Of a stretch of DNA of 64,000 nucleotides, positions 2,884 to 43,860 are shown in pieces (position 1 is the stretch's first letter; each line of letters starts with the position of its first letter). Made by a program: the position numbers and the translations under genes. This DNA is from Aureimonas sp. OT7. GTDB lineage: Bacteria > Pseudomonadota > Alphaproteobacteria > Rhizobiales > Rhizobiaceae. Below the pieces are notes generated by a model that was given only the letters and a program-made list of their open reading frames with translations, did no database searches and was not told the origin of the DNA. The stretch is taken from positions 1,131,501-1,195,500 of the forward strand of contig NZ_CP062167.1 in the NCBI RefSeq assembly GCF_014844055.1. The letters are read 5' to 3'.

Positions 2884-3354
2884 ATGGATTTGACAGTGCA
2901 GCAAAATCAATTGCCCGAAGGTCGGGTCAACAAGAAAAAGCCCGACGAGGCCGACGTCATCGTCGGTCGTCAGATCCAGGCGATCCGGATGCGCGCCCGC
3001 GTCAGCCGCGAATGGCTCGGAGATCGTCTCGGCATCACGTTCCAGCAGGTGCAGAAGTACGAGAACGCCACCAACCGCATTACGGTTGGCCGTCTCTGCG
3101 ATATCGCACGCGTCCTGGAAGTGCCGCTGATGCGCTTCTTCGAAGGGGTTCCGGCGGTGGCGTCGGCCCGTGGCGGCATGGCCGAGGGCGAGGGAAGCGG
3201 CTGGATCGGTGGCGACAGCCTTTCGGCCGAAGAGGCCCGGTTGCTGGAGCGGTTCCGCGATATCAGCGATCCGAACGTCCGGCGCATGGTCCTGGAGCTC
3301 GCCGACACGCTGGCCGCAACCAACCGCAAGCCGCAGCGCGGTTTCCGGCAGTAA
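2884..3354 (+). CDS. XRE-family helix-turn-helix transcriptional regulator
   Basis: This is a 156-residue protein with an HTH_XRE domain at about residues 25-80: the core VGRQIQAIRMRARVSREWLG is followed by LGITFQQVQKYENATNRIT. A serine/glycine-rich linker and a C-terminal LERFRDISDPNVRRMVLELA helix follow, a layout typical of rhizobial single-domain XRE regulators. ATG 2884 is preferred because AGAGG lies about 11 bp upstream; an in-frame ATG at 2842 would add 14 residues but has only a weak upstream site. Such a gene commonly precedes metK in this order, but its target is not known. It ends at a terminator-like hairpin. Confidence 0.82.
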   Translation: MDLTVQQNQLPEGRVNKKKPDEADVIVGRQIQAIRMRARVSREWLGDRLGITFQQVQKYENATNRITVGRLCDIARVLEVPLMRFFEGVPAVASARGGMAEGEGSGWIGGDSLSAEEARLLERFRDISDPNVRRMVLELADTLAATNRKPQRGFRQ

Positions 3355-3370
3355 GCCCCGGTAACGGACT

Positions 3371-3394
3371 GAACGGGCGTTCAGGCGCCCGTTC
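3371..3394 (+). terminator. Hairpin terminator after the XRE gene
   Basis: A perfect 9-bp stem GAACGGGCG/CGCCCGTTC with a 6-base loop is followed by a pyrimidine-rich run (CATCTTCCCCCTT). It separates the XRE gene from metK. The tail is not a pure T run, so an RNA processing or leader element is possible. Confidence 0.55.
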
Positions 3395-3554
3395 GCATCT
3401 TCCCCCTTGACGCGGAAGCCGCGTCTCGCCAAACCCCTTGCGTTGAACGATCGTGCCTCCCGCACCGTCGTTCCCCCGTCGATCGGCCGGTTCCGCCGGC
3501 TGTCCAGGGCCCTTGGGCCGCGTCATTCCGCTTCGGCGGCAAGGTTTGGCATTC

Positions 3555-6338: not shown

Positions 6339-7928
6339 ATGGCAGTCAGTGCGAACAGGCTTGAGCTTCTGCAGATCGCAGACGCCGTCGCGCGCGAGAA
6401 GTCTATCGACCGCGAGATCGTGATCGCGGCCATGGCCGACGCGATCCAGAAAGCGGCGCGGGCCCGGTACGGGCAGGACACCAATATTCGCGTGGACATC
6501 AACTCCCGCACCGGCGAGATCAAGCTCCAGCGCCTGCTGGAAGTGGTCCACGATGTGGACGATCCCTCGACGCAGATCTACCTGGAGTTGGCGCGCGACA
6601 AGAACCCCGACGCCGAGCCGGGCGACTTCATCGCCGAGCAGTTGCCGCCGATGGAATTCGGCCGCATCGCGGCCCAGTCGGCCAAGCAGGTCATCGTGCA
6701 GAAGGTGCGCGAGGCCGAGCGCGACAAGCAGTACGAGGAATACCGCGACCGCGTCGGCGAGATCGTCAACGGCACGGTCAAGCGCGTGGAATACGGCAAC
6801 GTCATCGTCGATCTCGGCAAGGGCGAGGGCATCATCCGCCGCGATGAGCAGATCCCGCGCGAGATCTTCAGCTATGGCGACCGCGTGCGCGCCTATGTCT
6901 ACGATGTCCGCCGCGAGCAGCGCGGCCCGCAGATCTTCCTGTCGCGGACGCATCCGCAATTCATGGCGAAGCTGTTCACCATGGAGGTTCCGGAGATCTA
7001 CGATGGCATCATCGAGATCCGGGCCGTGGCCCGCGATCCCGGCTCGCGCGCCAAGATCGCCGTGGTCTCGCGCGATTCGTCCATCGACCCGGTCGGCGCC
7101 TGCGTCGGCATGCGCGGCTCTCGCGTGCAGGCGGTCGTCGGCGAGTTGCAGGGCGAAAAGATCGACATCATCCCCTGGTCGCCGGATGCCGCGTCCTTCC
7201 TGGTCAACGCCCTGCAGCCGGCCGAAGTCGCCAAGGTCGTGCTGGACGAGGACGCCGAGCGTATTGAAGTCGTCGTTCCGGATGACCAGCTATCCCTTGC
7301 GATCGGTCGCCGGGGCCAGAACGTGCGCCTTGCTTCGCAGCTGACCGGCTGGGATATCGACATCCTGACCGAGCAGGAAGAATCGGAACGCCGACAGAAG
7401 GAATTCGTCGAGCGGTCGGCGCTGTTCATGGACGCGCTCAACGTCGACGAGATGGTCGGCCAGCTTTTGGCGTCGGAAGGCTTTTCCTCGGTAGAGGAAG
7501 TAGCTTATGTTGATTCGGACGAGGTGTCTGCAATCGAAGGTTTCGACGAGGATACGGCTTCGGAAATCCAGACCCGGGCGCGTGAGTATCTCGATCAGCG
7601 CGAGGCGGAGCTGGACGCACGTCGCCGCGAACTCGGCGTTTCAGACGATCTGCGTGAGATCGACGGGCTGACGACACCCATGCTCGTGGCCCTCGGCGAG
7701 GACGATGTGAAGTCGCTCGAGGATTTCGCCGGTTGCGCCGCGGACGACCTCGTCGGCTGGACCGAGCGCAAGGACGGAGAAACCAAGCGTTTTACCGGCG
7801 CCCTCTCGGCCTTCGATGTCAGCCGCGCGGATGCCGAAGCCATGGTCATGCAGGCGCGCATCAAGGCGGGCTGGATTTCGGCCGACGCCGTCGAGGAAGC
7901 CGAGACGGCCGAAGACGAGGAAGCCTGA
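6339..7928 (+). CDS. nusA: Transcription termination/antitermination factor NusA
   Basis: NusA binds RNA polymerase and nascent RNA. The 529-residue protein has the N-terminal domain (about 1-130), an S1 domain (about 135-200), two KH domains (about 230-345, with the [17 protein letters not shown] motif) and a C-terminal helix-hairpin-helix repeat region ending in an acidic tail. ATG 6339 is chosen over 6330 because AGGAG (6325-6329) is 9 bp from it but abuts the earlier ATG. The product then starts [17 protein letters not shown], the usual alphaproteobacterial N-terminus. Confidence 0.96.
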
Positions 7929-7973
7929 CCGACACCTATCGGCGCAGGCAGGACGGGAACGAGGTGACGAACG

Positions 7974-8714
7974 GTGGAAGAGGAGGTGCAGTTGAACGAT
8001 CGCATGTGCATCCTCTCCCGCACGACCATGCATCCGGACGCGCTTGTCCGGCTGGTCGCGGCGCCGGACGGCACCGTCGTACCGGATTTGCGGCGGCGGT
8101 TGCCCGGACGCGGCGCGCACGTCGAGGCGCGGCGCAGGGTGGTGGAGGAGGTCGTCCGCAAGGGGCTTCTGAAACGGGCGCTGCGCCAGGACGTGAAGGC
8201 CGGGCCGGAACTGGCCGATACGGTGGACGCGGCTCTGTCGCGCTCTGCGCTCGGATCCCTCGGGATGGCCCGCAAGGCCGGCCAGGTGGTGACGGGCGCA
8301 TCCAAGGTCGATGCCGCCATCCGTGGCGGCAAGGCCGTCGCGCTGATCCACGCGCTGGATGGTGCGCCCGACGGAATCCGCAAGCTCGATGGCGCCGTCA
8401 AGGCGGCGACGGCGGGCGGGGTGAAGCCGGTATCGGTGTTCAGTTCCTTTTCCAGCGACGAAATGGGTTTGGCACTCGGCGGCGATAATGTGATACATGC
8501 TGCCGTTCTTGCCGGAAGTGCGGGTACGGCGTGCCTGAAGCGCCTTCGGGCGCTGGCGAATTTCAGGGAGCAAGGCTCCGATGAGAACGGGTTGCCGGAG
8601 CGGGATGCCGCCCGGGGCGACACGGTCTCGAACGAACATGCAGGGAAGCCCGGCTATCTCTGCGGCACGGACGATAGGCGTGGGACGACACCCACGCAGG
8701 AAGCGGAAGCGTAA
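7974..8714 (+). CDS. YlxR (DUF448)/L7Ae-like RNA-binding protein
   Basis: The N-terminal half (about 1-95) is a YlxR/DUF448 domain with RMCILSRTT and LPGRGAHVEARR. The second half (about 100-200) resembles the L7Ae/L30e-like fold, with LGMARKAGQVVTGASKVDAAI. This two-domain form sits between nusA and infB in alphaproteobacteria and is annotated as an RNA-binding protein; its function is not established. The start is uncertain. GTG 7974, TTG 7992 (5 bp after AGGAGG) and ATG 8004 are all in frame, and TTG 7992 has the best ribosome-binding site. It abuts infB directly. Confidence 0.85.
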   Translation: MEEEVQLNDRMCILSRTTMHPDALVRLVAAPDGTVVPDLRRRLPGRGAHVEARRRVVEEVVRKGLLKRALRQDVKAGPELADTVDAALSRSALGSLGMARKAGQVVTGASKVDAAIRGGKAVALIHALDGAPDGIRKLDGAVKAATAGGVKPVSVFSSFSSDEMGLALGGDNVIHAAVLAGSAGTACLKRLRALANFREQGSDENGLPERDAARGDTVSNEHAGKPGYLCGTDDRRGTTPTQEAEA

Positions 8715-14064: not shown

Positions 14065-16197
14065 ATGTTCAACACCCATAAAGTGGAAATCGAATGGGCC
14101 GGCCGCCCGCTGACGCTTGAGACGGGCAAGATCGCCCGGCAGGCCGACGGCGCCGTCCTTGCCACCTACGGCGAGACCACGGTCCTGGCGACCGTCGTCT
14201 CCGCCAAGGCGCCCAAGCCCGGCTTCGACTTCTTCCCGCTGACCGTCAACTACCAGGAAAAGGCCTTTGCGGCCGGTCGCATCCCCGGTGGTTACTTCAA
14301 GCGCGAAGGCCGCCCGTCCGAGAAGGAGACGCTCGTCTCCCGCCTGATCGACCGGCCGATCCGCCCGCTCTTCGCCGAAGGCTACAAGAACGACACGCAG
14401 GTCGTGGTCACCGTTCTGCAGCACGACCTCGAGAACGATCCGGACGTCGTGTCCATGGTGGCCGCATCCGCCGCGCTGACGCTGTCGGGCGTGCCCTTCA
14501 TGGGCCCCATCGGCGCGGCGCGCGTCGGCCTCATCGGCGGGGAGTTCAAGTTGAACCCGCATGTCGATGAAATGGTCGAATCCAAGCTGGATCTCATCGT
14601 TGCCGGCACGCAGGACGCCGTCCTGATGGTCGAGTCCGAAGCGCAGGAGCTCGACGAAGAGACGATGCTCGGCGCCGTCATGTTCGGTCATCGCGGCTTC
14701 CAGCCGGTGATCGACGCGATCATCCAGCTGGCCGAGCATGCGGCCAAGGAGCCGCGCGATCATGCCGCGCCGGACTACTCCGCCCTCGAAGGCGAGATGC
14801 TGAAGCTGGCCGAAACCGAACTGCGCGACGCCTACAAGATCACTGACAAGCAGGCTCGTTATGCCGCCGTCGACGCCGTCAAGGCAAAGGTCTCGGCGCA
14901 TTTCCTGCCCGAGGGCGACGAAGCCCCGCGCTTCACGAAGGAAGAGATCGGCTCGGTCTTCAAGGAGCTCCAGGCCAAGATCGTGCGCTGGAACATCCTC
15001 GACACCAAGAGCCGCATCGACGGCCGCAGCCTCGATACGGTCCGCCCGATCGTCGCCGAAGCCGGCCTTCTGCCGCGGACGCACGGCTCGGCCCTGTTCA
15101 CGCGTGGCGAGACGCAGGCCCTCGTAGTGGCGACGCTCGGCACCGGCGAGGACGAGCAGTATGTCGACTCGCTGACGGGGACCTACAAGGAAACCTTCCT
15201 GCTGCACTACAACTTCCCGCCCTATTCCGTCGGCGAGACGGGCCGCATGGGCTCGCCCGGCCGCCGCGAGATCGGCCACGGCAAGCTGGCCTGGCGGGCG
15301 ATCCGGCCGATGCTGCCGGCGAAGGAAGCCTTCCCCTACACGCTGCGCGTCGTGTCCGAAGTCACCGAATCCAACGGCTCCTCGTCGATGGCCACGGTGT
15401 GCGGCACCTCGCTGGCGCTGATGGATGCCGGCGTGCCGCTCGGCCGTCCGGTTGCGGGTATCGCCATGGGCCTCATCAAGGAAGACGAGCGCTTCGCCGT
15501 TCTGTCGGATATCCTCGGTGACGAGGATCACCTCGGCGACATGGACTTCAAGGTGGCCGGTACGGACGAGGGCATCACCTCGCTCCAGATGGACATTAAG
15601 ATCCAGGGCATCACCGAGGAGATCATGAAGATCGCCCTCGAGCAGGCCCGTGGCGGACGTATCCATATCCTCGGCGAGATGGCCAAGGCCCTGTCCCAGA
15701 GCCGTTCCGAGCTGGGCGAGTTCGCCCCGCGCATCGAGGTGATGCAGATCCCGACCGACAAGATCCGCGACGTGATCGGCTCCGGTGGCAAGGTGATCCG
15801 CGAGATCGTCGAGAAGACCGGCGCCAAGATCAACATCGAGGATGACGGCACGGTGAAGATCGCGTCGTCCTCCGGCAAGGAGATCGAGGCGGCCCGCAAG
15901 TGGATTCACTCCATCGTGGCGGAGCCGGAAGTCGGCGGCGTCTACGAAGGCACGGTCGTCAAGACGGTCGAGTTCGGCGCATTCGTCAACTTCTTCGGTT
16001 CGCGCGATGGTCTCGTCCATATCAGTCAGCTCGGCGCCGACCGCGTCGCCAAGACGACCGACGTCGTCAAGGAAGGCGACAAGGTATGGGTGAAGCTGAT
16101 GGGCTTCGACGAGCGCGGCAAGGTCCGCCTGTCGATGAAGGTCGTCGACCAGGCGTCCGGCCAGGAAATCCGCAAGGACGCGGAAGACGCCGCCTAA
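14065..16197 (+). CDS. pnp: Polyribonucleotide nucleotidyltransferase (PNPase)
   Basis: PNPase degrades RNA phosphorolytically from the 3' end. The 710-residue protein has two RNase PH domains (about 1-225 and 310-545, including [21 protein letters not shown]), a KH domain (about 555-615, with [19 protein letters not shown]) and an S1 domain (about 620-690). ATG 14065 gives the usual [16 protein letters not shown] start. The last 56 sense codons, the stop and the downstream terminator are copied twice more in the tandem repeat that follows, but the gene itself is intact. Confidence 0.97.
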
Positions 16198-16222
16198 GCT
16201 GCGCTTGCGTCAAAACTATCGG

Positions 16223-16247
16223 AAAGGCCGGGGCGACCCGGCCTTTT
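16223..16247. terminator. pnp terminator, copy 1
   Basis: AAAGGCCGGG-GCGA-CCCGGCCTTTT forms a perfect 10-bp stem with a T tail and, read the other way, an A-to-T tail, so it can serve both convergent genes. It lies 26 bases after the pnp stop. Confidence 0.88.
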
Positions 16248-16294
16248 CGTGTTCAGGCGTTCAGGCTTCCGCATCCGGCGCGATCATTGGCGCG

Positions 16295-16342
16295 TCAGCC
16301 GCCCCCGGACATGATGGCGTCGATCAGGGCGCGCGCATCGGC
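16295..16342 (-). pseudogene. Duplicated 3' fragment of the tlpA-like gene, copy 1
   Basis: The minus strand encodes the last 15 residues ([15 protein letters not shown]) and stop of the TlpA-like protein. Ile replaces the Phe of the intact gene. It is cut at the repeat junction. Confidence 0.75.
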
Positions 16343-16519
16343 ATCGGCCAGCTCGGCGCCGACCGCGTCGCCAAGACGACCGACGTCGTCAAGGAAGGCG
16401 ACAAGGTATGGGTGAAGCTGATGGGCTTCGACGAGCGCGGCAAGGTCCGCCTGTCGATGAAGGTCGTCGACCAGGCGTCCGGCCAGGAAATCCGCAAGGA
16501 CGCGGAAGACGCCGCCTAA
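16343..16519 (+). pseudogene. Duplicated 3' fragment of pnp, copy 2
   Basis: The fragment repeats the last 56 residues of PNPase (from [17 protein letters not shown] to DAEDAA) and its stop, with no start, catalytic or KH region. An open frame runs in from copy 1's spacer at 16205, giving a 104-codon chimera, but no ribosome-binding site or family N-terminus supports it as a gene. Confidence 0.8.
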
Positions 16520-16544
16520 GCTGCGCTTGCGTCAAAACTATCGG

Positions 16545-16570
16545 AAAGGCCGGGGCGACCCGGCCTTTTT
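16545..16570. terminator. pnp terminator, copy 2
   Basis: This has the same 10-bp stem as copy 1 with a five-T tail, inside the second repeat unit. Confidence 0.82.
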
Positions 16571-16615
16571 GCGTTCAGGCGTTCAGGCTTCCGCATCCGG
16601 CGCGATCGTTACGCG

Positions 16616-16663
16616 TCAGCCGCCCCCGGACATGAAGGCGTCGATCAGGGCGCGCGCATCGGC
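16616..16663 (-). pseudogene. Duplicated 3' fragment of the tlpA-like gene, copy 2
   Basis: The minus strand encodes the last 15 residues ([15 protein letters not shown]) and stop, identical at protein level to the intact gene's end. It is cut at the second repeat junction. Confidence 0.75.
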
Positions 16664-16840
16664 ATCGGCCAGCTCGGCGCCGACCGCGTCGCCAAGACGA
16701 CCGACGTCGTCAAGGAAGGCGACAGGGTGTGGGTGAAGCTGATGGGCTTCGACGAGCGCGGCAAGGTCCGCCTGTCGATGAAGGTCGCCGACCAGGCGTC
16801 CGGCCAGGAAATCCGCAAGGACGCGGAAGACGCCGCCTAA
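16664..16840 (+). pseudogene. Duplicated 3' fragment of pnp, copy 3
   Basis: This is a second extra copy of the last 56 PNPase codons and stop. It carries two substitutions that change the protein: Lys to Arg in the GDKVWVK stretch and Val to Ala in KVVDQ. These changes suggest it is free of selection. Confidence 0.8.
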
Positions 16841-16865
16841 GCTGCACTTGCGTCAAGACTATCGG

Positions 16866-16890
16866 AAAGGCCGGGGCAACCCGGCCTTTT
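16866..16890. terminator. Terminator, copy 3 (also serves the tlpA-like gene)
   Basis: AAAGGCCGGG-GCAA-CCCGGCCTTTT retains the full stem with one loop change. It lies 48 bases beyond the stop of the minus-strand tlpA-like gene and is its likely terminator. Confidence 0.85.
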
Positions 16891-16937
16891 CGCGTTCAGG
16901 CGTTCAGGCTTTCGCATCCGGCACGATCATTGGCGCG

Positions 16938-17618
16938 TCAGCCGCCCCCGGACATGAAGGCGTCGATCAGGGCGCGCGCATCGGCCCCGGCCCATTCGGC
17001 CGGCCCGTTCATGACGCCGCGGGCACAGCCCGTCTTGTCGACGAGCATGGTGACCGGCATGCCGAAGGCGACTCCGTTGCCCTTCAGATCGTTGAAGAGT
17101 TTCAGCGTTTCGTCCCGGTACATGGGCAGATGGGTCAGCCCGATCTCGTCGTAGAAGGCCTGCGGCTTGTCGGTCTCGCCGAGATCCAGGTTGATCGGCA
17201 CCACCGCGAAGGCATCGCTGCCCGCTTCCGCCTGGAGACGGTCGAGCTCCGGCATTTCGACCCGGCAGGGCACGCACCACGTTGCCCACAGGTTGACCAG
17301 CAGCGTCTGCCCGGCCATCGCGCCGATGCTGGTCTGCACGCCGTCCGCATCCTTGAAGGCCAGCGCGGTGGCATCGAAGGGCGTGTCCATGGCCACCATC
17401 GCCGCCACTTCGCCGCGCGCGGCCGCGTCGATCCGCGCCTTCAACTGATCGTCGACGGGGCAATTGCCCGCAACTTCGTTGCCAGAGCGGCTTTCGATCA
17501 CGTATACGCCAAGTGCGCCGGCCGCGACGCCGGCAAAGAGCGCCAGGGTGCCGAAGCTGAAAAGCGAGCGCTTGCGCGGCTCCTTGCCGGGGGACGGTTG
17601 CTGCGGCGACGACTGCAT
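16938..17618 (-). CDS. tlpA: TlpA-like thiol:disulfide oxidoreductase
   Basis: The 226-residue protein has one N-terminal membrane anchor (about 21-41) and a periplasmic thioredoxin fold. Its active site is WATWCVPCR (C115, C118), with the cis-proline region [13 protein letters not shown]. TlpA proteins reduce disulfides in the periplasm, classically to supply reduced thiols for cytochrome oxidase assembly; the client here is unknown. It is convergent with pnp and divergent from argH, with only 39 bp between starts. Its last 15 codons are duplicated in the adjacent tandem repeat. Confidence 0.9.
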
Positions 17619-43015: not shown

Positions 43016-43860
43016 CCTGCGTGATGGCGCTCGTGGTGGCCGGCGCCTTCGCACCGGCTTCCGCCCGCGCGCAGGACAGGGATTTCGGCGGCGCCATCGA
43101 GCTGGTCGATCCGGATGTGCTGCGCGTCTGCGCCGACCCCAATTCCATGCCCTATTCCAACCAGAAGGGCGAAGGGTTCGAGAACGAGCTTGCGACCTTC
43201 CTGGCGGGCAAGCTCGGCCGCAAGTCGGTCAGCTATACCTATTTCCCGCAGGCAACCGGCTTCGTGCGGATGACGCTCGGCCTGCACCGCTGCGATATCA
43301 TCATGAGCTATCCGCAGGGCGACGAGCTGGTCCAGAACACCAACGCCTATTACCGCACCGCCTATGCGCTCGTGTATCGCAAGGGCAGCGGGCTCGACGG
43401 CGTCGATACGCTTGAGGACGCGCGGCTGAAGGACAAGACGGTCGGCGTTGTGGCCGGCACCCCGCCGGCCACCTTCATCGCCAAGGCCGGTCTGATGGGC
43501 AAGGCCAAGGGTTACCAGCTGATGGTCGATACGCGGATCGACAATTCCGCAGCCGACATGATGGCGGATCTGGAAAACGGCGTCATCGATGCAGCCGTGC
43601 TCTGGGGCCCGCTTGCCGCTTATCAGGCCCGCAGGGGCGGCAACGACTACGTCGTCGTGCCGCTGCTGAAAGAGCCGCGCGGACCCGCGATGGTGTTTCG
43701 CATCACGATGGGCGTCCGGCCGAGCGACCAGGAGTGGAAGCGAACCTTGAACCGGGTGATCGCGGAGAACCAGGACGAGATCAACAAGATCCTGTTGTCC
43801 TACGGCGTCCCGCTGCTGGACGAGCAGAACCGGCCCATCACTCCGGTGCAGGGCGGATAA
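43000..43860 (+). CDS. xoxJ: XoxJ-type periplasmic substrate-binding-like protein
   Basis: This 286-residue exported protein (signal MPRLLTCVMALVVAGAFAPASARAQ in type) has the SBP_bac_3-like fold: LRVCADPNSMPYSNQKGEGFE, LHRCDIIMSYPQGDE and DLENGVIDAAVLWGPLA. It matches the quinoprotein dehydrogenase-associated family. No ABC permease sits with it. XoxJ/MxaJ proteins are thought to help activate or mature the dehydrogenase. The ATG lies within the last codons of xoxG in another frame, so translation is coupled. Confidence 0.9.
   Translation: MPRLLTCVMALVVAGAFAPASARAQDRDFGGAIELVDPDVLRVCADPNSMPYSNQKGEGFENELATFLAGKLGRKSVSYTYFPQATGFVRMTLGLHRCDIIMSYPQGDELVQNTNAYYRTAYALVYRKGSGLDGVDTLEDARLKDKTVGVVAGTPPATFIAKAGLMGKAKGYQLMVDTRIDNSAADMMADLENGVIDAAVLWGPLAAYQARRGGNDYVVVPLLKEPRGPAMVFRITMGVRPSDQEWKRTLNRVIAENQDEINKILLSYGVPLLDEQNRPITPVQGG

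What the first reader, a model, noticed from the sequence alone, without database searches (positions are those of the whole stretch)
16021..16985. Tandem triplication of a convergent gene-end segment (pnp tail, terminator, tlpA tail)
Three 321-322-bp units stand head to tail. Each holds 56 pnp codons, a bidirectional terminator and 16 antisense tlpA codons including the stop. Both parent genes stay intact, because the first unit merges with pnp and the last with the tlpA-like gene. The junction pairs GCATCGGC of the tlpA gene with a short ATC-G-CAGCTCGG-like match in pnp, which suggests a microhomology-driven duplication followed by unequal exchange. Scattered substitutions between copies show it is not brand new. 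The result is three terminators in a row between two converging transcripts.
Basis: seen in the sequence. Interest (0 to 1): 0.72.

Follow-up and report, generated by a model that had tools for sequence, protein, structure and literature searches.

The report
Tandem copies of convergent gene ends
The place where two genes run tail to tail has been copied three times in a row in this skin bacterium, and similar short tandem copies, nearly all between tail-to-tail genes, turned up elsewhere in the sampled part of its chromosome but not in samples of three relatives.

Summary
In detail: three head-to-tail units (spacing 322 and 321 bp, 96-98% identical) between convergent pnp and a tlpA-like gene, both intact. 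The two nearest species have one unit. The locus is not a one-off. In 1.664 Mb of this chromosome I found ten tandem arrays (units 196-511 bp, TRF match 93% or more); nine lie between convergent genes (null 16%; P 7e-7, or 4e-6 without the window). Seven of the ten are single copy in DSM 21988, six of these also in A31. Three other genomes of the genus gave none in 1.2 Mb, but the last 0.4 Mb of OT7 gave none either. No measured array is young (best 98.4%), and differences between copies fit drift alone poorly. Best reading: short illegitimate duplications, kept where they break no gene, perhaps partly joining two diverged alleles. Microhomology is supported for the class, not for this array. 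Selection for extra terminators is untested. Each mechanism is known; the set at convergent ends is the news.

The parts
14065..16197 (+). pnp (polynucleotide phosphorylase), intact; its last 57 codons (stop included) from 16027 form the left part of unit 1
   Evidence: ORF and Pfam domains; 99% identical protein in DSM 21988
16021..16342 (.). Unit 1: functional pnp tail, hairpin, dead tlpA tail (16295-16342)
16343..16663 (.). Unit 2: dead pnp tail (no difference from unit 1 in 171 bp), hairpin, dead tlpA tail
16664..16985 (.). Unit 3: dead pnp tail (3 differences from unit 1, 2 of them at second codon positions), hairpin, functional tlpA tail (16938-16985)
16327..16356 (+). Junction 1: tlpA ...GCGCATCGGC, then ATCGGC (16343-16348), then pnp CAGCTCGG... 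(16349 on)
16648..16677 (+). Junction 2, same letters as junction 1 (ATCGGC at 16664-16669)
16220..16249 (+). Hairpin 1, intrinsic-terminator-like, T tail on + strand
16542..16568 (+). Hairpin 2
16863..16892 (+). Hairpin 3 (one loop change, stem intact); not among the two sites of the consensus scan
16938..17618 (-). tlpA-like thiol-disulfide oxidoreductase gene, intact, 226 aa

Best explanation
The array is one member of a set of short (196-511 bp) tandem duplications and triplications in the Aureimonas sp. OT7 chromosome. Each most likely formed by an illegitimate or short-homology joining event (template switch or end joining) between the 3' part of one gene and the 3' part of the gene facing it, and a few were then expanded to three copies by homologous unequal exchange. 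They are seen almost only at convergent gene ends because a duplication there leaves both genes and both promoters intact, while one inside a gene or between co-directional or divergent genes is mostly removed by selection. Shown: array anatomy, recurrence in the sampled 40% of the chromosome, convergent bias, single-copy state in DSM 21988 for seven arrays and in A31 for six of them. Inferred: the joining mechanism, selection as the cause of the bias, and lack of function of the extra copies. The likely local effect is three strong + strand hairpins in a row behind pnp, which should make termination more complete without a needed function.
For: Array anatomy. In 81 stretches of the own genome (1.664 Mb, 5,000 bases masked; plus window) ten TRF arrays have period 196-511 and match of 93% or more. 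Nine of ten lie between convergent genes; eight of these reach into both genes, L185 only into the right one. Pfam domains support both genes of all nine pairs except the 148-aa left gene of L180. Convergent share among random segments that span one gene junction: 0.16; P of 9 or more of 10 is 6.8e-7, of 8 of 9 (window, or L185, left out) 3.8e-6, of 7 of 8 (both left out) 2.1e-5. None of the ten has both ends inside one gene, while 62% of random segments do. Single copy in DSM 21988 for seven of ten: window, L136, L146:331 and L146:14501, L162:1092, L173, L180; the same six without L146:14501 also in A31. No array of this kind in 0.4 Mb each of G006, G003 and G013, where 7.2 in all would be expected at the OT7 density, 6.75 without the window (P 0.0007 and 0.0012). 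Breakpoint homology 13, 8, 8 and 8 bp in four of nine measured arrays, sum over nine P 0.0016.
Against: The bias is very strong (odds about 46-fold); co-directional transcription-unit boundaries should tolerate such duplications too, so selection alone may not be enough and a formation hotspot is possible. The last 0.4 Mb taken from OT7 held no array at 93% or more, so the density is uneven or lower than the first samples suggest (P 0.11 at the mean density). No young array (99-100% identical) was seen, which a steady process should give. Drift of dead copies alone fits the codon positions poorly. Five of nine junctions, this one among them, show no homology above chance. The 93% cut-off was set after looking: with period 190 or more TRF also gave L156 (84%, between two minus-strand genes), L236 (79%, inside a gene) and L247 (87%, unclear), which I left out; with L156 it is nine of eleven, P 3.2e-6. 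Gene calls for the null came from a home-made caller that misread some loci, the window among them.
Confidence: 0.68

Rival explanations
1. Allele-joining: DNA of a related strain (about 2% different) was taken in, recombined by homology at one end and by illegitimate joining at the other, so two alleles of the same gene end now stand side by side. The divergence between copies then partly predates the duplication, and there need be no young arrays.
For: Between first and last copies of nine arrays, third codon positions (36 of 60 coding differences, 798 sites) and spacers (23 of 296 sites) are over-divergent relative to first and second positions (24 in 1595 sites). A drift-only model is rejected against a drift plus allelic mixture (LRT P 2.7e-4; 0.009 without array L162:7294; 2e-4 and 0.008 after removing the bases past the window's breakpoint, 1e-4 without the window array). 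The allelic part is 0.18-0.27 of the OT7-DSM 21988 distance, about 2% genome-wide, near the 2.5% ANI difference between OT7 and its conspecific ON-56566 given in PMC7936629. In L162:7294-8315, 13 of 14 coding differences are third-position, P 1.4e-4 under a drift expectation of 0.43.
Against: Purely allelic divergence is rejected as well. In this window the pnp part shows 2 of 3 changes at second positions, as in a dead copy. The model takes its spacer rate (20 of 91) and its coding rates from one locus, and the counts are small. Triplications need a further step. No second genome of this species was available.
Confidence: 0.3
2. Formation hotspot: convergent transcription, terminator hairpins or head-on collisions cause fork stalling, and aborted synthesis is rejoined a few hundred bases back, which duplicates the junction. 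Location reflects where the arrays form, not what selection allows.
For: Nine of ten arrays lie between convergent genes; strong hairpins in the spacers of the window array, L162:7294, L173 and L180.
Against: L146:331 (10 spacer sites) and L162:1092 (0 spacer sites) leave no room for a terminator between the stops in the unit. The nearest relatives have no array at the sites tested. Two Ku genes occur also in four relatives, including DSM 21988 and A31, so end joining by Ku does not single out this strain.
Confidence: 0.2
3. Selected terminator multiplication: repeated terminators between converging genes are kept because they cut read-through and antisense RNA.
For: All three hairpins in the window keep an intact stem although the flanks have diverged.
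Against: With a stem of about 20 bases and 11 variable sites elsewhere in the spacer and tlpA parts, an intact stem is expected often enough by chance to be uninformative. Not all arrays have room for a terminator. No expression data.
Confidence: 0.1
4. Assembly artefact, for example from a mixed culture of two strains.
For: Copies differ by about the distance of two conspecific strains.
Against: Long-read-only assembly, 268x, read N50 15.8 kb, so reads can span a 965-bp array. Boundaries avoid gene interiors and prefer convergent ends. Four of the ten arrays have three or more copies. Differences are mainly substitutions, 83 against 8 indels between first and last copies of nine arrays, not the usual PacBio error type (recalled). 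The raw reads were not seen.
Confidence: 0.03

Closest known systems
Spontaneous tandem duplications at short direct repeats in bacteria (Sun et al. 2012, PMC3411829, abstract and section list seen)
   Same: Duplications whose junctions carry short homologies; here 4 of 9 measured junctions have 8-13 bp
   Different: There, rearrangements in growing chemostat cultures; here fixed, diverged 0.2-0.5 kb units lying almost wholly between convergent genes
Transformation-made merodiploids (Johnston et al. 2013, PMC3784515, abstract and section list seen)
   Same: Tandem duplication arising during genetic exchange
   Different: There, about 100-900 kb duplications through repeated sequences in pneumococcus; here 0.2-0.5 kb with little or no repeat at the ends, and no evidence that OT7 is transformable
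Homology-facilitated illegitimate recombination (recalled; the term occurs in papers listed, not read for it)
   Same: One homologous and one illegitimate end would join a foreign allele beside the resident one
   Different: Not demonstrated here; donor unknown

Membership tests
Tandem segmental duplication by short-homology or illegitimate joining | Head-to-tail units in the same orientation with a novel joint | tested here: met
Tandem segmental duplication by short-homology or illegitimate joining | Single-copy state in relatives | tested here: met
   window locus single in DSM 21988 and A31; seven of ten arrays single in DSM 21988, six of these in A31; L162:7294 partly tested, L165 and L185 untested
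Tandem segmental duplication by short-homology or illegitimate joining | Microhomology at the joint beyond chance | tested here: inconclusive
   not for this array (5 bp, P 0.21); for nine arrays together yes (sum P 0.0016)
Homology-facilitated import of a diverged allele | Differences between copies look like those between functional alleles | tested here: inconclusive
   mixture with drift favoured over either alone; clear only in L162:7294-8315
Homology-facilitated import of a diverged allele | One unit matches the allele of another strain | not testable with these tools
   collections hold one genome per species
Selected multi-terminator array | Extra hairpins change termination or antisense RNA | not testable with these tools
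   needs Term-seq or RNA-seq
Coding repeat or minisatellite within a protein | Unit a multiple of three inside an open frame | tested here: not met
   in the nine arrays measured, no unit length divides by three except the 321-bp middle unit of the window; each of the nine spans a gene boundary

The most novel reading that the evidence does not exclude
The chromosome carries perhaps two dozen scars of one process (25 by extrapolation from the sample): DNA of a conspecific strain entered, paired by homology at one side and was joined illegitimately at the other, leaving two alleles of a gene end in tandem; mainly the events at convergent gene ends survived. Such arrays would be fossils of one-sided recombination that let the direction and divergence of past gene exchange be read from a single genome.
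Probability: 0.25. Interest if true: 0.78.

Novelty: new variant of a known kind. Interest (0 to 1): 0.5.

Why it matters
Short tandem duplications in bacteria are usually thought to be transient, because near-identical neighbours recombine and are lost (recalled). A chromosome with ten in 1.66 Mb sampled, all measured ones diverged by a few per cent and nearly all between convergent genes, gives a natural record of how such duplications form and which survive. It also makes testable whether gene-end duplications come from replication accidents or from one-sided exchange with other strains. Practically, convergent ends may be the safe places for extra sequence in a compact genome.

Tried and rejected
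Rfam on 15800-17200: only hits far below the gathering score (RsmZ-like 21-27 bits against 44, sX6-like 19-22 against 40, Xoo8-like 13 against 90), taken as chance. A 104-aa ORF running through junction 1 (16205-16519) has no Pfam match; rejected as a gene. Phage origin: the exact junction pattern has no match in viral contigs; plasmids were not searched. Second pnp-tail hits in G106 and G308 lie on other contigs; in G106 both hits lie near contig starts, so a broken array cannot be excluded there. Ku copy number as the cause: two in OT7, but also two in G011, G013, G014 and G017. Gene conversion as the reason for low coding divergence: expected to homogenise spacers more, the reverse of what is seen (inference). 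The cluster of unit 1-2 differences outside pnp (0 of 171 against 5 of 144, Fisher P 0.019) was not pursued; constraint on the functional copy explains part of it. A first count of breakpoint homology missed homologies offset by indels and was replaced. Left out of the ten: TRF arrays L156, L163 (61-bp period), L236, L247 and BLAST repeats that are coding, lower in identity or not adjacent (L162:11559-13366, L173:2073-2332, L229; in G013 L249 and L259); in control G006 one 78-bp, 80% array (L204). L185 is counted among the ten but left out of the copy-difference and breakpoint counts, because its units are hard to phase.

Literature: ten searches of the held library; where many papers matched, only the listed part was seen. 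Listings only, except PMC7936629 (whole text) and the abstracts and section lists of PMC3784515 and PMC3411829. None of the listings named a genome-wide set of tandem duplications at convergent gene ends; that is not proof of absence.
Full report
OBSERVATION. Between pnp (14065-16197, +) and a tlpA-like gene (16938-17618, -) stand three head-to-tail units starting at 16021, 16343 and 16664. Unit 1 carries the real pnp tail, unit 3 the real tlpA tail; the other tails are dead. Both proteins are full length with their expected domains and match DSM 21988 at 99% and 98%. Each unit holds the same GC-rich hairpin, -31 to -33 kcal/mol on the + strand and -21 to -24 on the - strand. Both joints read GCGCATCGGC, ATCGGC, CAGCTCGG; DSM 21988 and A31 have ATCAGC before CAGCTCGG in pnp, so either one base changed after the join or a 6-bp repeat arose there. 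Exact homology at the breakpoints is no better than chance (5 bp, P 0.21).

GENOME AND ARTEFACT CHECK. The contig is 4,181,223 bp, the length published for Aureimonas sp. OT7, a human skin isolate sequenced by PacBio RS II, 267.7x, 20-kb library, read N50 15,790 bp, HGAP3 with Quiver (PMC7936629, whole text). Reads of that length can span the array, though I did not see the reads. The copies differ mainly by substitutions. I regard the array as real.

RELATIVES. The 321-bp unit matches once in each of 20 other genomes of the genus, and over its whole length only in DSM 21988 (88%) and A31 (85%) (E up to 1e-10). The convergent pnp-tlpA order within the fetched flanks is seen in DSM 21988, A31, A. 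frigidaquae and G017, each with one pnp tail. Searching 65 PNPase residues (the last 65) in 394 genomes of the family, 385 match, three of them more than once (G000, G106, G308). In G106 and G308 the second match is on another contig; in G106 both lie near contig starts, so a broken array cannot be excluded. Tandem pnp tails are thus shown in 1 of 394.

HISTORY OF THE THREE UNITS. Units 1 and 2 are identical over 171 bp of pnp and differ at 5 of 144 other sites plus one indel; unit 3 differs from unit 1 at 3 of 171 and 7 of 145. Spacer differences are 4 of 96 (1-2), 6 of 97 (1-3) and 8 of 96 (2-3), against 20 of 91 between unit 1 and DSM 21988. Unit 2 is nearest to unit 1.

NOT A ONE-OFF. As a background check I took stretches of the same chromosome (80 of 20 kb, plus the window: 1.664 Mb, 5,000 bases masked). 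TRF with period 190 or more gave 13 arrays. Ten have 93% match or more: L136:17780-18370, L146:331-1092, L146:14501-15093, L162:1092-1688, L162:7294-8315, L165:10099-10644, L173:16099-16534, L180:11441-12091, L185:7002-7677 and the window. Dropped: L156 (84%), L236 (79%, inside a 1700-aa frame) and L247 (87%). All ten come from the first 1.264 Mb; the last 0.4 Mb gave none at 93% or more. Nine of the ten lie between convergent genes: LysR-type regulator/aldo-keto reductase, YkuD/IalB, GFO-IDH-MocA oxidoreductase/tRNA methyl transferase family, sigma-70 family factor/FG-GAP protein, CobO-type adenosyltransferase/RDD, trypsin-like protease/sulfate permease, a 148-aa protein without Pfam match/fasciclin, ribosomal S20/outer-membrane barrel, pnp/tlpA. 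Eight reach into both genes; L185 fills the gap and reaches only the right one. L136 is co-directional (squalene-phytoene synthase, then a 504-aa protein without Pfam match). With a simple gene caller (1497 genes, 87% coverage), 16% of random segments of these lengths that span one gene junction span a convergent one; nine or more of ten has P 6.8e-7, eight of nine without the window 3.8e-6, seven of eight without window and L185 2.1e-5, nine of eleven with L156 added 3.2e-6. The caller is rough and misread some loci, but no plausible error brings 16% near 90%.

LINEAGE. Seven arrays are single copy in DSM 21988: the window; L136, with both flanks; L146:331, where the anchor to base 330 ends at 43454 and base 708 begins at 43455 of the DSM contig; L146:14501; L162:1092; L173; L180. 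The same calls show six of these single in A31; for L146:14501 the A31 match stops inside the first unit. L162:7294 matches both relatives through unit 1, but the right-hand gene gave no close match; L165 and L185 were not tested. Both relatives are draft assemblies that could hide collapsed copies. Samples of 0.4 Mb from each of two genomes of the genus held as one or few contigs (G006, G003) and from DSM 21988 gave no array of period 190 or more at 93% or more; at OT7 density 7.2 would be expected in 1.2 Mb, 6.75 without the window (Poisson P 0.0007 and 0.0012).

HOW THEY FORMED. Breakpoint homology over nine arrays is 13, 8, 8, 5, 4, 8, 2, 3 and 5 bp; four exceed chance, the sum has P 0.0016. 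So short homology helps but is not required. OT7 has two Ku genes, but so do DSM 21988, A31, A. frigidaquae and G017.

WHY NONE IS YOUNG. Over nine arrays, identities of first to last copies run from 94.9 to 98.2%, and the best pair of any two copies is 98.4%. Between first and last copies there are 83 substitutions and 8 indels in 2689 sites; coding differences are 12, 12 and 36 at codon positions 1, 2 and 3; spacers 23 of 296. In functional divergence (pnp plus tlpA, OT7 against DSM 21988) the positions are 12, 4 and 109. Drift of dead copies after duplication should give more first- and second-position changes and less spacer divergence than seen: drift only is rejected against a mixture (P 2.7e-4; 0.009 without L162:7294), and so is purely allelic divergence (P 2e-8). 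Removing the seven bases past the window's breakpoint, or the window array altogether, leaves this standing (P 2e-4, 0.008 and 1e-4). The mixture puts the allelic part at 0.18-0.27 of the OT7-DSM distance, about 2%, near the 2.5% ANI difference to ON-56566. These are small counts under a simple model with rates from one locus; I hold this as a serious lead, not a result.

READING. The best-supported account is short illegitimate duplication plus a survival filter: at convergent ends a duplication harms nothing. What is unusual is the number, the strength of the bias, the absence from the sampled relatives, and the lack of young copies. The boldest account not excluded is one-sided exchange with a conspecific that left two alleles in tandem. 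Added terminators may matter, but nothing here tests it.

WHAT IS NEW. Each mechanism is known. My ten searches of the held library listed no paper on genome-wide tandem duplication of convergent gene ends. I class it as a new variant of a known kind.

Noticed in passing
L136:17780-18370, L146:331-1092 and 14501-15093, L162:1092-1688 and 7294-8315, L165:10099-10644, L173:16099-16534, L180:11441-12091, L185:7002-7677: Nine further tandem duplications or triplications of 0.2-0.5 kb in the same chromosome, eight of them between convergent genes.
   Followed up: yes
L162:7294-8315: 511-bp duplication behind a sigma-70 family gene; 13 of 14 coding differences between copies are at third codon positions, as between two functional alleles.
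   Followed up: partly
L146:1836-2381 and 2911-3402: Two Ku (end-joining) genes in convergent orientation about 0.5 kb apart, near one of the arrays; the same pair occurs in DSM 21988 and A31, where that array is single copy.
   Followed up: partly
L185:6948-7700: About 3.4 more diverged 199-bp units fill most of an 850-bp gap between the ribosomal S20 gene and an outer-membrane barrel gene; may be older than the others.
   Followed up: no
L247:4800-6900 and L156:17789-18748: Lower-identity tandem arrays (84-87%) in surroundings without clear long genes.
   Followed up: no
window 16027-16197 and copies: Units 1 and 2 are identical in the pnp part but differ in the rest (0 of 171 against 5 of 144, P 0.019).
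   Followed up: partly
L122 and L124 (G106): Two different pnp tails near the starts of two contigs of one genome: two genes, contamination or a broken array.
   Followed up: no
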